The notes beneath the pieces were generated by a model. That model saw nothing but the letters and a program-made list of their open reading frames with translations, had not been told where the DNA came from and searched no databases. A stretch of DNA of 64,000 nucleotides from Manganibacter manganicus (lineage in GTDB: Bacteria > Pseudomonadota > Alphaproteobacteria > Rhizobiales > Rhizobiaceae). The stretch lies in NCBI RefSeq assembly GCF_002075885.1, contig NZ_MDET01000006.1, positions 62,001 to 126,000 on the forward strand. The letters are read 5' to 3'. Of this stretch, positions 1,850-5,706 are shown one piece after another (the first letter of the stretch is position 1; each line of letters begins with the position of its first letter). Both the position numbers and the translations under genes were made by a program.

Positions 1850-3232
1850 ATGCACGCCAAAGCCCCCTCGCCGATCGCCCGGACTGAACAGCCGGCCTCG
1901 CATCTGTTTTACGGGTCGCGCCAACGCCGGCCGCTGGTGGAGCGCGCCGAAGGCATCTATGTCTGGACGCAGGATGGGCGGCGCTTCATCGACGGTTCGA
2001 GCGGGCCGATGGTCGCCAATATCGGCCATGGCAACCGCAACGTCATTGCGGCGATGCAGCGGCAGATGGAAAAAGCCACCTTCGCCTACCGCCTGCATTT
2101 CGAGAACGAGCCGGCGGAAGAGCTGGCGCGGCTTCTGTCGCAAAAAATGCCGGGCGATCTCGACCGCGTGTTCTTCGTTTCCGGCGGCTCGGAAGCGGTG
2201 GAATCGGCCATCAAGCTGGCGCGGCAATGGGCGGTCGCCACCGGCCAGCCGAAACGCTGGAAGGTGATTTGCCGCATGCCCTCCTACCATGGCGGCACGA
2301 TGGGTGCGCTGGCCGTGACCGGCGATCTGGCGCTGACCGAAACCTTCGCGCCGCAGACCCTGGCGATGCCCGCCATTCCCGCGCCAACCGCCTATCGCGA
2401 CCGCGACAACCTCTCCATGGAGCAGCGCGGCATCCGTTATGCCGACATGCTGGAGGAAAAAATCCTGGCGGAGGGGCCGGAAAGCGTCGCTGCCTTCATC
2501 ATGGAGCCGATCGGCGGGGCGGCCACCGCCGCACTCGTGCCGCCGGACAGCTATTTTGCCCGCATTCGCGAAATCTGCGACCAATACGGCATTCTCTTGA
2601 TCCATGACGAAGTGATGAGCGGGGCCGCGCGCACCGGCAAATATCTCGGCGGCGACCACTGGGCCTGCCGGCCGGACATCATCACCATGTCGAAGGGCAT
2701 CGGCTCCGGCTATGCCCCGCTCGGCGCGATGATCGCGTCGCGCCGGGTGGTGGAGCCGGTGCTCGACATGGGCGGCTTCCAGCACGGCTATACCTATGCC
2801 GGCAATCCGCTGGCCTGTGCCGCAGGCCTTGCCGTGCTCGACGAAATGGAACTGCTGGGCTGCGAGGAAAACGCCGCCGCCATGGGCGATTTGCTGATCG
2901 CCGAATTGCAGGGCCTGACCGAGCGTTTCCCCTTCATTGCCGGCGTGCGCGGCAAGGGCCTGCTGATCGGCGCCGACATGGTGGCCGACCCGCAGGATTT
3001 TACGCCGTTGCCGAAGGACAAGCACGCCAACCAGCGCCTGCTCGATCTCGCCTATGAGCGCGGGCTGATCGTCTATTCGCGCCGCATCCGGGGCGACGGG
3101 CTCGGGCTCGACAATTTCATCCTCGCGCCGCCGCTCATCATCACCAAAGAGCAGGTCGGCGAGATGGTCGGCGTGCTGGGCGATTCGCTGGAAGCCTTGG
3201 CGAAAGAACTCGACCTGCCGGTACGAGGCTGA
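1850..3232 (+). CDS. Class III PLP-dependent aminotransferase
   Basis: A fold-type I, class III (omega-amino acid type) transaminase of 460 residues, normal for the family. SGGSEA (about 111-116) binds the PLP phosphate, IHDEVMSG contains the pyridine-nitrogen Asp253, and TMSKGIGSGYAPLG carries the Schiff-base Lys282. Such enzymes move the terminal amino group of diamines, beta- or omega-amino acids to pyruvate or 2-oxoglutarate; the substrate here is not known. It is the first gene of an operon with the BKACE gene (4-base gap), a GNAT and a deacetylase, which suggests amine or amino-acid catabolism. A divergent ParB-like gene lies upstream. Confidence 0.92.
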   Translation: MHAKAPSPIARTEQPASHLFYGSRQRRPLVERAEGIYVWTQDGRRFIDGSSGPMVANIGHGNRNVIAAMQRQMEKATFAYRLHFENEPAEELARLLSQKMPGDLDRVFFVSGGSEAVESAIKLARQWAVATGQPKRWKVICRMPSYHGGTMGALAVTGDLALTETFAPQTLAMPAIPAPTAYRDRDNLSMEQRGIRYADMLEEKILAEGPESVAAFIMEPIGGAATAALVPPDSYFARIREICDQYGILLIHDEVMSGAARTGKYLGGDHWACRPDIITMSKGIGSGYAPLGAMIASRRVVEPVLDMGGFQHGYTYAGNPLACAAGLAVLDEMELLGCEENAAAMGDLLIAELQGLTERFPFIAGVRGKGLLIGADMVADPQDFTPLPKDKHANQRLLDLAYERGLIVYSRRIRGDGLGLDNFILAPPLIITKEQVGEMVGVLGDSLEALAKELDLPVRG

Positions 3233-3236
3233 AGGC

Positions 3237-4172
3237 ATGGCATCCGCGCCCCGCAAGGTCATCATCACCTGTGCCGTTACCGGCTCGGTTCATACGCCGA
3301 CCATGTCACCGCATCTGCCGGTGACGCCGGACCAGATCGCAGCGGAGGCCATCGCAGCGGCCGAAGCCGGGGCCTCGATCCTGCACCTGCATGCCCGGGA
3401 CCCCAAGGACGGCCGACCGACCGCCGACCCCGCCGTGTTCATGCAATTTTTGCCGCGCATCAAGCAAGCGACCGATGCGGTGGTGAATATCACCACCGGC
3501 GGCTCCTCGCTGATGACACTGGAGGAGCGCCTGGCCGCGCCGCTGCAAGCGCAGCCGGAAATGTGCTCGCTCAATATGGGATCCATGAATTTCGGCCTGT
3601 TCCCGATGCTGGACCGCCCGCGCGAATGGCGGCACGAATGGGAACCGAAGCTGTTGGAGGCGACCCGCCACACCATCTTCAAGAACACCTTTGCCGACAT
3701 GGAAACGATTCTCGAAAAGCTCGGCAAGAGTTGCGGCACCCGCTTCGAATTCGAATGTTACGATGTCGGCCATCTCTATTCGCTGGCGCATTTCCGCGAC
3801 CGCGGGCTGGTGTCGGGGCCACTGTTCATCCAGTTCGTGCTGGGCATATTGGGCGGCATCGGCGCCGATCCGGAAAACCTCGTCCACATGAAGCGGATTG
3901 CCGACAAGCTGTTCGGCGACGATTACCGCTTCTCGGTTCTGGCCGCCGGCCGCCATCAGATGCCGCTGGTCTCGATTGCCGCAAGCATGGGCGGCAATGT
4001 GCGCGTCGGGCTGGAGGACAGCCTCTATGACGGGCGGGCATTGGCCAAATCCAACGCCGATCAGGTGCGCCGCATCAGGAGCATTGTGGAAAACCTGTCG
4101 CTGGACGTCGCCACGCCCGCCGAGGCACGCGCCATGCTGGCCCTGAAAGGCGGCGACCGGGTGGCGTTTTGA
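3237..4172 (+). CDS. Beta-keto acid cleavage enzyme (BKACE, DUF849)
   Basis: A member of the BKACE family, Zn-dependent TIM-barrel enzymes that condense a beta-keto acid with acetyl-CoA to give acetoacetate and a CoA ester; the founding member, Kce, cleaves 3-keto-5-aminohexanoate in lysine fermentation. The zinc motif HLHARDP is at residues 50-56, and the conserved MGGNVRVGLED segment near residues 248-258 is present. Length (311) is usual. The second gene of the operon, it starts 4 bases after the aminotransferase stop. Together they suggest that a transaminated amine is oxidised to a beta-keto acid and cleaved here. The exact substrate cannot be read from sequence. Confidence 0.92.
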   Translation: MASAPRKVIITCAVTGSVHTPTMSPHLPVTPDQIAAEAIAAAEAGASILHLHARDPKDGRPTADPAVFMQFLPRIKQATDAVVNITTGGSSLMTLEERLAAPLQAQPEMCSLNMGSMNFGLFPMLDRPREWRHEWEPKLLEATRHTIFKNTFADMETILEKLGKSCGTRFEFECYDVGHLYSLAHFRDRGLVSGPLFIQFVLGILGGIGADPENLVHMKRIADKLFGDDYRFSVLAAGRHQMPLVSIAASMGGNVRVGLEDSLYDGRALAKSNADQVRRIRSIVENLSLDVATPAEARAMLALKGGDRVAF

Positions 4173-4678
4173 GGGATCCAAAACTCGCCATTCGCCCGGC
4201 GCGCGCCGAAGACGCCGACAATATCCTTGCAGGCCTGCGCGGCATCGCCGAAACCATCGGCAAACCGCACAAGGTCAAGGCGACGGCGGACGACATTCGC
4301 CGCTGCGGCTTTGGCGACAGGCCGGCTTTTTCGGTGCTGATTGCAGAAACCGATTCAACATTCGCCGGCATGTGCCTGTATTTCCCGATTTTTTCGAGTT
4401 GGCTGGCGCAGCCCGGCGTTTATGTGCAAGACCTTTTCGTCGATGAAAAATTCCGCGGCCTGAATATCGGGGAGAAGCTGCTGCGTCATCTGGCACGCAA
4501 CGTCGCCGCGCAAGGCGGCGCCTATCTGGAACTGGTCGTCGATAGCGAGAATTTTCGCGCGCAACGCTTCTACGAGCGCATCGGCCTGCCGCATCGCGAT
4601 GACGACCATGTGCACCGGATCACGGGCGAAGCCTTTTTGGATTTCGCCAATAACGACAAGCCCGAGGGAGAACAATGA
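4169..4678 (+). CDS. GNAT-family N-acetyltransferase, SSAT-like
   Basis: A 169-residue acetyl-CoA-dependent GNAT. The acetyl-CoA loop is visible as VDEKFRGLNIGEKLL (about 92-106) and the C-terminal NFRAQRFYERIGL is the usual GNAT beta-strand/helix end. The layout YFPIFSSW...G.YVQDLFV resembles spermidine/spermine and thialysine N-acetyltransferases, but this is by eye only. The start is a TTG overlapping the BKACE stop by 4 bases (TTTTGA), implying translational coupling. The stop overlaps the next start (ACAATGA). Being cotranscribed with an acetylpolyamine deacetylase-like gene suggests that an amine substrate is acetylated and deacetylated during the pathway. Confidence 0.85.
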   Translation: MRDPKLAIRPARAEDADNILAGLRGIAETIGKPHKVKATADDIRRCGFGDRPAFSVLIAETDSTFAGMCLYFPIFSSWLAQPGVYVQDLFVDEKFRGLNIGEKLLRHLARNVAAQGGAYLELVVDSENFRAQRFYERIGLPHRDDDHVHRITGEAFLDFANNDKPEGEQ

Positions 4679-5706
4679 AAGCCTTTTATGCCGACGAACA
4701 GAAACGTCACAATCCGAAGATGTTTTTGTCCAGCGGCGCGCAGAAGCCCAACCCGGAACAACCGGAACGCGTCGAACGCCTGAAAGCCGGCGCCAAGGCA
4801 GCCGGCGTCACCATCGAGCGTCCGCGCAACCACGGCCTCGGACCGGTTTCCGCCGTGCATACGCCCGAATATCTCGATTTCCTCGAACATATTTTTATTC
4901 GCTGGCAGCGGATCGAGGGCGCATCCGAGGAGGTCATCCCCAATATCCACGCACTCGCGCGCGGCGGCTCATATCCGGCTTCCGCCGTCGGCCAGGCCGG
5001 CTATCACATGGCCGACACCGCCTGCCCGATCTCGGCCGAGACATGGGAAAGCGCGCTGTGGAGCGCATGGAGCGCCGTGGAGGCGGCGGAGACGGTGATG
5101 GCGGGTGCGCCCGCCGCCTATGCGCTGTGCCGCCCGCCCGGCCATCACGCCTTCACTGACGCCGCCGGCGGCTTCTGCTTCATCAACAATTCGGCGGTGG
5201 CCGCGCAATCCTTGCGCAAATCCGCGGCGCGGGTCGCGATCCTCGACGTGGACCTGCACCACGGCAACGGCACGCAGGGCATCTTCTATGCCCGTCCGGA
5301 TGTGCTGACCGTCTCGCTGCATGCCGATCCGGTGCGCTTTTATCCGTTCTTCTGGGGACATGCCGACGAGCGTGGTGAAGGCCCCGGCCTCGGCTACAAT
5401 CTCAACCTGCCCTTGCCCCGCAAATCCGGCGACGAGGCGTTTCTCGCTGCGCTCGAACCGGCCTTGCGCCGCATCCGCGCCTTCGCGCCCGACGCGCTGG
5501 TCGTGGCGCTGGGGCTGGATGCCTTCGAGGGCGACCCATTCGGCGGGCTTTCGGTAACGACGCCCGGATTTTCCCGCATGGCCGAGGTAATTGCCGGGCT
5601 GGGCCTGCCAACGGTAATCGTGCAGGAAGGCGGCTATCTGTGCGATGCGCTGGGCGACAACCTCACCGCCTTCCTCACCGGCTTCGGCAGCGCGATGAAA
5701 ACCTGA
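4675..5706 (+). CDS. Histone deacetylase-fold acetylpolyamine amidohydrolase
   Basis: A 343-residue arginase/deacetylase-fold hydrolase close in layout to bacterial acetylpolyamine amidohydrolase. All catalytic residues are seen: His157-His158 in RPPGHHAF, Zn ligands Asp193 and His195 in DVDLHHGNG, Asp282 in ALGLDAFEGDP, and Tyr321 in QEGGYL. The numbering is offset by 2 from that of the Mycoplana enzyme as I recall it. It should release acetate from an N-acetylated amine. Last gene of the operon, overlapping the GNAT by 4 bases. The substrate (acetylputrescine, acetylcadaverine or another N-acetyl amine) is unresolved. Confidence 0.9.
   Translation: MKAFYADEQKRHNPKMFLSSGAQKPNPEQPERVERLKAGAKAAGVTIERPRNHGLGPVSAVHTPEYLDFLEHIFIRWQRIEGASEEVIPNIHALARGGSYPASAVGQAGYHMADTACPISAETWESALWSAWSAVEAAETVMAGAPAAYALCRPPGHHAFTDAAGGFCFINNSAVAAQSLRKSAARVAILDVDLHHGNGTQGIFYARPDVLTVSLHADPVRFYPFFWGHADERGEGPGLGYNLNLPLPRKSGDEAFLAALEPALRRIRAFAPDALVVALGLDAFEGDPFGGLSVTTPGFSRMAEVIAGLGLPTVIVQEGGYLCDALGDNLTAFLTGFGSAMKT

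What the first reader, a model, noticed from the sequence alone, without database searches (positions are those of the whole stretch)
1850..5706. Operon combining transaminase, BKACE, GNAT and acetylpolyamine deacetylase
Seen: four tightly packed genes (gaps of 4 bases or 4-base overlaps) with complete active sites. Known: class III aminotransferases act on terminal amines, BKACE enzymes cleave beta-keto acids with acetyl-CoA, and the last enzyme deacetylates N-acetyl amines. Inference: a pathway that acetylates an amine, transaminates it, cleaves the keto acid and removes the acetyl group. The joint use of acetylation, deacetylation and BKACE in one operon is not a route I know, and the substrate (a diamine, polyamine or beta-amino acid) is open.
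Basis: partly seen in the sequence, partly recalled or inferred. Interest (0 to 1): 0.6.

Follow-up and report, generated by a model that had tools for sequence, protein, structure and literature searches.

The report
Operon for eating beta-lysine
Four tightly linked genes in a bacterium related to Mesorhizobium very probably break down beta-lysine, an unusual form of the amino acid lysine, by capping it with an acetyl group, cutting it and uncapping it; this would give genes to a pathway described by enzyme work decades ago.

Summary
In detail: four same-strand genes at 1850-5706, spaced +4, -4, -4 bases: class III aminotransferase (AT), BKACE, GNAT, HDAC-fold deacetylase. Order recurs in relatives (123 of 124 multi-gene loci). 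Relatives swap steps: 8 loci have CoA-transferase plus M20 (ArgE/DapE) deacylase and none of them BKACE or HDAC, 6 of these with a thiolase; 2 other loci have HDAC and M20 together. The swapped order AT-CoAT-CoAT-M20 occurs in two Bacillota, followed by beta-lysine acetyltransferase (ablB) and lysine 2,3-aminomutase (ablA). On Rhizobium plasmids a GNAT relative lies in one gene run with, or some kb from, a lysine-2,3-aminomutase-like gene; one such operon has an AT nearest to beta-transaminases. Only a beta-amino acid gives a beta-keto acid on transamination. Best reading: N6-acetylation, transamination, cleavage and deacetylation of beta-lysine to GABA, the route I recall from Barker's laboratory. 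Against: none of the 136 AT- or BKACE-centred loci holds the aminomutase. My searches found no paper assigning genes. Nothing was assayed.

The parts
1850..3232 (+). class III aminotransferase; proposed N6-acetyl-beta-lysine transaminase (gives 3-keto-6-acetamidohexanoate)
   Evidence: PF00202 2e-94; best NCBIfam PRK06917, 420.5 bits, below its cut-off 535; that model scores 767 bits on the AT of the Bacillus velezensis ablB-ablA operon; 37% identical to it over 426 aa; SKG motif
3237..4172 (+). BKACE (beta-keto acid cleavage enzyme); proposed 3-keto-6-acetamidohexanoate + acetyl-CoA -> 4-acetamidobutyryl-CoA + acetoacetate
   Evidence: PF05853 2e-108; NF053538 529 bits over cut-off 430; nearest solved chains 3e49, 3e02, 8rio
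4169..4678 (+). GNAT acetyltransferase; proposed beta-lysine N6-acetyltransferase
   Evidence: PF00583 3e-15; family profile (30 rows) hits thialysine acetyltransferase 12jc 6.8e-33, diamine acetyltransferase 2 (SSAT2) 2bei 4.7e-30, NATA1 ornithine N5-acetyltransferase 8xbn 4.4e-20; 48% identical over 157 aa to the GNAT in the gene run with the KamA-like gene of Rhizobium sp. C104
4675..5706 (+). HDAC-fold (acetylpolyamine-amidohydrolase-like) deacetylase; proposed to act on 4-acetamidobutyryl-CoA or 4-acetamidobutyrate, giving GABA
   Evidence: PF00850 4e-76; best solved chain 3men 9.9e-106; catalytic motifs present; polyamine salt-bridge residues E106 and E117 of the M. ramosa enzyme replaced by V105 and A116

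Best explanation
The operon encodes an acetyl-capped catabolic route for L-beta-lysine (3,6-diaminohexanoate) or its N6-acetyl form. GNAT acetylates the terminal N6 amine; this stops the later 3-keto-6-amino acid from closing to a cyclic imine (inferred). AT removes the beta-amine to give 3-keto-6-acetamidohexanoate. BKACE and acetyl-CoA cut it to 4-acetamidobutyryl-CoA plus acetoacetate. The HDAC-fold enzyme removes the acetyl group, from the CoA ester or, after a thioesterase, from 4-acetamidobutyrate, leaving GABA, which goes to succinate. Shown here: gene content, order, conservation, replacement of steps in relatives, linkage of the replaced version to ablA/ablB-type genes, and enzyme families. 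Inferred: every substrate and product.
For: Order and strand conserved. L189 reads ABC importer - AT - CoA-transferase A/B - M20 deacylase - thiolase; L190 has the same type of importer with AT - BKACE - HDAC. Of 8 loci with CoA-transferase and M20, none has BKACE or HDAC (two of the 8, L244 and L245, have no window-type AT); 6 of the 8 have the thiolase; L177 is a hybrid AT-BKACE-GNAT-M20. CoA-transferase plus thiolase and BKACE both act on beta-keto acids. Bacillus velezensis and Cytobacillus spongiae carry AT - CoAT A - CoAT B - M20 - ablB - ablA; identities of the B. velezensis proteins to M382/type C ones: AT 39%, CoAT 46-53%, M20 34-36%. Rhizobium sp. C104: KamA-like - CoAT A/B - M20 - thiolase - GNAT, M20 69% identical to type C and GNAT 48% to the window's; both Asp positions that I recall as binding the lysine side chain are kept in that KamA-like protein (read from the alignment). 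The AT of the sister operon in R. bangladeshense is nearest to the Mesorhizobium beta-transaminase 2yku, 1.7e-129, and beta-phenylalanine aminotransferase 4ao9. GNAT profile: thialysine/lysine-type side-chain acetyltransferases. Own genome has acetoacetyl-CoA synthetase (996 bits, cut-off 521) and succinate-semialdehyde dehydrogenase (2 over cut-off) for the products.
Against: KamA linkage is direct only for the CoA-transferase/M20 version: in 138 loci KamA relatives occur in L244 and L245 only, and AblB in none. Own genome has no KamA-family gene, so beta-lysine would have to be imported, and no transporter lies beside the window operon. 20 KamA neighbourhoods from Pseudomonadota, picked from the 72 genomes with a match, had no AT, BKACE, GNAT or HDAC relative; of 42 plasmid records with KamA I opened 5 by the KamA hit: 2 Bacillota have the set, 3 others (L248-L250) do not. 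The C104 KamA-like gene belongs to AblA_like_2 (TIGR03822), a group also found beside epmA (EF-P modification, hit H54), so its neighbourhood may be partly coincidental. HDAC and M20 are not strict alternatives: L182 and L186 have both in one gene run, and L081 has a 51% M20 about 9 kb away on the other strand. 27 of 137 loci have AT-GN-HD without an intact BKACE, one of them with BKACE in two pieces; all 8 such genomes tested have BKACE genes elsewhere, but the best is only 60-69% identical. GNAT is missing in 8 of 11 loci with a PotD-like importer. The window AT does not reach the PRK06917 cut-off, and the AT tree could not place the Bacillus rows with certainty.
Confidence: 0.7

Rival explanations
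1. Catabolism of acetylated diamines or polyamines (acetylputrescine, acetylcadaverine, acetylspermidine), with the HDAC as a true acetylpolyamine amidohydrolase.
For: HDAC nearest in sequence to chains named acetylpolyamine amidohydrolase; 11 of 138 loci have a PotD-like binding protein (family hit PotD 3e-12); GNAT profile also hits SSAT1 diamine acetyltransferases. PsApaH, a polyamine deacetylase, also lacks E106 and has Gly117, so loss of these two is not proof.
Against: Transamination of a terminal amine of a diamine gives an aldehyde, not a beta-keto acid, so BKACE or CoA-transferase/thiolase would have no role; the E106 and E117 positions are V/A/S and A/S in all 27 operon HDACs aligned, and PIS becomes P-F/L-x (roles of E106, E117, PIS from passages of PMC11532494 and PMC5454378).
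Confidence: 0.1
2. The same scheme on another omega-amino-beta-amino acid (other chain length), or on a beta-lysine conjugate that a separate amidase opens first.
For: A DMFase-like amidase relative lies in 103 of 138 loci, 97 of them with GNAT; two marine loci add an amidohydrolase and an alanine racemase. No BKACE locus holds the aminomutase.
Against: The ablA/ablB linkage of the sister version points to beta-lysine; GNAT relatives fit a lysine-type side chain.
Confidence: 0.15
3. BKACE works as named by NCBIfam NF053538 (3,5-dioxohexanoate cleavage), and the neighbours belong to an unrelated amine detoxification.
For: NF053538 score 529 over cut-off 430; BKACE15 of Paracoccus (8rio, 389 bits) accepts 3,5-dioxohexanoate and other neutral beta-keto acids (PMC11961710, passages).
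Against: Conserved four-gene order; nothing in the operon makes a 3,5-dioxo acid; BKACE15 also takes plain beta-ketohexanoate, so the family tolerates neutral side chains, which acetamido is.
Confidence: 0.05

Closest known systems
L-beta-lysine degradation in an aerobic Pseudomonas (Barker laboratory, 1979-81; recalled: N6-acetylation, N6-acetyl-beta-lysine transaminase EC 2.6.1.65, 3-keto-6-acetamidohexanoate cleavage with acetyl-CoA, 4-acetamidobutyryl-CoA deacetylase/thiolesterase EC 3.5.1.51, GABA)
   Same: Four reaction types match four genes one to one, including acetyl-CoA-dependent cleavage to acetoacetate (recalled)
   Different: That work was on purified enzymes without sequences (recalled); this is a gene cluster without enzymes; organism differs
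Bacillus ablA - ablB - M20 - CoA-transferase - AT operon (kamA/yodO to yodT in B. subtilis, gene names partly recalled)
   Same: Homologous AT; same acetylation, transamination and deacetylation steps by family
   Different: Makes beta-lysine itself (ablA); uses CoA-transferase and M20 in place of BKACE and HDAC. PMC6522883 (passages): B. subtilis KamA makes beta-lysine in vitro but its physiological function, and that of YodT, are given as undetermined
Lysine fermentation with Kce (3-keto-5-aminohexanoate cleavage enzyme)
   Same: BKACE-family cleavage of a lysine-derived beta-keto acid with acetyl-CoA
   Different: Fermentative, 3,5-diamino intermediate, no acetyl cap (recalled); the window BKACE scores 236 bits on the Kce model, under its cut-off 382
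Acetylpolyamine amidohydrolases (M. ramosa APAH, P. aeruginosa PA0321/PA1409)
   Same: Family, zinc and catalytic motifs
   Different: Polyamine-binding acidic residues of the M. ramosa enzyme absent; context is beta-keto acid cleavage
Thialysine/SSAT2/NATA1 acetyltransferases
   Same: GNAT group that acetylates the side-chain amine of lysine-like amino acids
   Different: Here part of a degradation operon; only profile-level similarity

Membership tests
L-beta-lysine degradation via N6-acetylation (Barker route) | genes for acetyltransferase, transaminase, beta-keto acid cleavage and deacetylase together | tested here: met
L-beta-lysine degradation via N6-acetylation (Barker route) | linkage to beta-lysine formation, CoA-transferase/M20 version in relatives | tested here: met
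   ablB-ablA after the homologous AT-CoAT-CoAT-M20 genes in two Bacillota; KamA-like next to CoAT/M20/thiolase/GNAT in Rhizobium C104
L-beta-lysine degradation via N6-acetylation (Barker route) | linkage to beta-lysine formation, BKACE/HDAC version itself | tested here: not met
   no KamA or AblB relative in the 136 loci other than L244 and L245; none of the four genes in 20 Pseudomonadota KamA loci; none in own genome. Not needed for a route fed by uptake
L-beta-lysine degradation via N6-acetylation (Barker route) | enzyme activities on the named intermediates | not testable with these tools
   needs assays
BKACE (PF05853) | family profile and zinc-binding motif | tested here: met
   2e-108; HLHARD at 50
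NF053538 3,5-dioxohexanoate:acetyl-CoA acetone transferase | model cut-off 430 bits | tested here: met
   529 bits; says which subfamily, not which substrate in this organism
Kce, 3-keto-5-aminohexanoate cleavage enzyme (NF052387) | model cut-off 382 bits | tested here: not met
   236 bits
Acetylpolyamine amidohydrolase (substrate polyamines) | zinc and catalytic motifs of the HDAC superfamily | tested here: met
Acetylpolyamine amidohydrolase (substrate polyamines) | acidic residues E106 and E117 (M. ramosa numbering) and PIS motif | tested here: not met
   V105, A116, PFG in the window; V25/A1/S1 and A15/S12 of 27. PsApaH, a proven enzyme, has His106 and Gly117 but keeps PIS, so lack of the two acids alone is not proof
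AblB beta-lysine N-acetyltransferase (TIGR03827) | match to the model | tested here: not met
   no match listed at E <= 0.001 for the window GNAT nor at 1e-5 among 30 relatives
PRK06917 (YodT-type aminotransferase, NF005375) | cut-off 535 bits | tested here: not met
   420.5 bits, best model by a hair over PRK07483 420.4

The most novel reading that the evidence does not exclude
A catabolic module of rhizobia and marine alphaproteobacteria that takes up beta-lysine or N6-acetyl-beta-lysine made by other organisms, with an HDAC-fold enzyme serving as the 4-acetamidobutyryl-CoA deacetylase (a new substrate class for the HDAC superfamily, as far as I know), a BKACE with a new substrate, and a DMFase-like amidase that frees beta-lysine from amides; GNAT is kept where free beta-lysine is eaten and lost where the acetylated solute is taken up.
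Probability: 0.35. Interest if true: 0.75.

Novelty: new variant of a known kind. Interest (0 to 1): 0.6.

Why it matters
It gives candidate genes to a pathway known, as I recall, only from enzyme work of about 1979-81, with orphan activities (transaminase and 4-acetamidobutyryl-CoA deacetylase), and makes them directly testable. It would correct annotations that now read aspartate aminotransferase family protein, 3-keto-5-aminohexanoate cleavage protein and histone deacetylase family protein (names seen), and show an HDAC-fold enzyme working in amino acid catabolism. It also points to beta-lysine (recalled as part of an osmolyte, several antibiotics and modified EF-P) as a food source.

Tried and rejected
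Polyamine catabolism as the first guess from the deacetylase: held less likely for the aldehyde argument and the missing acidic residues. KamA in the own genome: none. KamA neighbourhoods in Pseudomonadota: 20 loci, none with the four genes, one with CoA-transferase. KamA or AblB inside the AT-centred loci: none outside L244 and L245. A radical SAM gene near a Roseomonas AT (L191): best model MoaA, no KamA model among the best 25 of 53 shown. AblB membership of the GNAT: no match. Streptothricin acetyltransferase (STAT): 18 of 30 GNATs match at 1e-5, but RimI matches 26 and two other models 24 each, and the STAT scores seen (32 and 43 bits) are far below the cut-off 420, so it is only a hint. 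A first gene caller by longest ORF missed genes in this G+C-rich DNA and was replaced by a codon-score caller plus tblastn. The AT tree (36 rows, midpoint root) has very long rows (Thioflavicoccus, Deinococcus) and does not settle the place of the Bacillus AT. No structure was predicted; a fold would not give the substrate. Bastard 2014 on BKACE and the Barker papers were not found in the library's listings and were not read (recalled).

Counts: one search kept 137 of 138 loci given (thresholds AT 330, BK 260, GN 60, HD 250 bits); L064 fell below them; the AT of L056 was dropped by the script (a stop was reported inside that gene); the sets overlap (128 different AT sequences). Neighbour counts are over the same 138 loci, many with cut flanks.

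Papers: PMC6522883, PMC11961710, PMC11532494, PMC4784309, PMC5454378 and PMC12133276 seen as passages only; others as search listings with the start of the abstract. No paper assigning these genes was found (open-licence PubMed Central only).
Full report
Observation. The genome looks like a Mesorhizobium: the two nearest named AT matches are Mesorhizobium (85-86%), and the same-genus genome G073 has a contig of the same length (80006) as one of Mesorhizobium sp. B2-4-15.

Conservation. AT relatives at E <= 1e-120 were found in 28 of 121 genomes of the family, own genome included, and at 1e-125 in 21 of 398 of the phylum, all in the same class. Among 137 loci (overlapping sets) 76 hold all four genes, 27 have AT-GN-HD without intact BKACE, 13 AT-BK-HD without GNAT, 21 fewer. 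Of 124 loci with two or more of them all have one strand and 123 the same order. Context differs: many have a divergent LysR gene with a polar amino acid ABC importer, others a PotD-like importer. A DMFase-like protein (PF20254) occurs in 103 of 138 loci. The window operon stands alone; its genome has a 53% DMFase-like relative and a 38% relative of the importer's binding protein elsewhere.

Replacement of steps. Rhodobacteraceae M382 has importer-AT-CoA-transferase A/B-ArgE/DapE deacylase-thiolase-amidohydrolase-alanine racemase; Parasedimentitalea marina has importer-AT-BKACE-HDAC-amidohydrolase-alanine racemase, without GNAT; the two ATs are 62% identical to each other, and 60% (M382) and 58% (P. 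marina) identical to the window's. L180 has GNAT in the CoA-transferase version and L177 combines BKACE with M20. Of 8 loci with CoA-transferase and M20, none has BKACE or HDAC. The rule is not strict for the deacetylase: L182 and L186 have BKACE, HDAC and an M20 relative (47%) in one run. From established chemistry, CoA-transferase plus thiolase and BKACE are two ways to cut a beta-keto acid; M20 and HDAC are two kinds of amide hydrolase. So the intermediate is best read as an N-acylated beta-keto acid, and its precursor by transamination as an N-acylated beta-amino acid (inference).

Which beta-amino acid. In Bacillus velezensis and Cytobacillus spongiae the order AT-CoAT A-CoAT B-M20 is followed by ablB and ablA; model scores in B. 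velezensis: ablA 628 over 525, ablB 303 over 205, AT 767 over 535, M20 742 over 428. Identities between the Bacillus and alphaproteobacterial proteins are modest but nearly full-length. On the Rhizobium C104 plasmid a lysine-2,3-aminomutase-like gene precedes CoAT A/B, M20, thiolase and GNAT; R. bangladeshense and R. leguminosarum plasmids have LysR-CoAT-CoAT-M20-thiolase-GNAT-AT with such a gene about 7 and 17 kb further on. The R. bangladeshense AT is of another kind, nearest to characterised beta-transaminases. The GNAT group, including the window's, is by profile nearest to thialysine, SSAT2 and ornithine N5-acetyltransferases. This fits N6-acetylation of beta-lysine.

Deacetylase. Catalytic motifs are intact; the residues that bind polyamine nitrogen in M. 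ramosa APAH (E106, E117) are not acidic in any of 27 operon proteins (roles; positions read by me from the alignment). PsApaH, a polyamine deacetylase, lacks them too. R221 (26 of 27) and W227 (27 of 27) are group features that could serve a carboxylate or CoA (inference). Whether the substrate is the CoA ester or the free acid is open; a hot-dog thioesterase lies in 23 of 138 loci.

Downstream. Own genome has acetoacetyl-CoA synthetase and succinate-semialdehyde dehydrogenase; no 3-oxoacid CoA-transferase over cut-off, no KamA.

Against. No cluster of BKACE/HDAC with KamA was found: of 138 loci only L244 and L245, which lack BKACE and HDAC, hold KamA, and 20 KamA loci of Pseudomonadota hold none of the four genes. 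Of five plasmid KamA loci opened by that hit, out of 42 records, two carry the AT-CoAT-M20 set and three do not. Loci without BKACE must rely on a paralogue (8 of 8 genomes have one, best 60-69%). The missing GNAT in 8 of 11 PotD-like loci is explained only by the guess that the acetylated compound is imported. The role of the DMFase-like protein is unknown.

Verdict. Known enzyme families in a well-conserved operon whose substrate can now be named with fair confidence. New, as far as I could search, is the link of genes to the route; the chemistry, as I recall it, is old.

Noticed in passing
L046:10556-12199 and 103 of 138 loci: A protein of about 545 aa with the N,N-dimethylformamidase beta C-terminal domain (PF20254) occurs next to or near the aminotransferase in most loci; no role is known to me in this context.
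   Followed up: partly
L189:14186-16461 and L190:12367-14653: Amidohydrolase and alanine-racemase genes appended to the operon in two plasmid loci of Rhodobacterales.
   Followed up: partly
L244, L245, L282 (Rhizobium plasmids): KamA-like gene, ATP-grasp or biotin-carboxylase-type ligases and the CoA-transferase/M20/thiolase/GNAT operon lie near each other on plasmids typed as conjugative; could be making and eating of a beta-lysine compound.
   Followed up: partly
G000:C11:84285-85205 (L063) and G000:C14:58918-59793 (L064): Two BKACE paralogues in the own genome (58%, and 34-51% in two pieces); each has in its neighbourhood a dehydrogenase that I read as carnitine- or 3-hydroxyacyl-CoA-dehydrogenase-like (cluster c27).
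   Followed up: no
L086:11391-12307: BKACE gene in two pieces (84% and 80% identical) in Rhizobium sp. RCAM05350 plasmid; possibly a frameshift or assembly error.
   Followed up: no
L248:7902-11271 (Deinococcus radiodurans plasmid 3): KamA family gene close to a class III aminotransferase 37% identical to the window's and a semialdehyde dehydrogenase: another aminomutase context.
   Followed up: no
L182:12391-13662 and L186:12587-13843: M20 deacylase relative (47%) downstream of BKACE, HDAC and an FAD oxidoreductase: both kinds of deacetylase in one run.
   Followed up: partly
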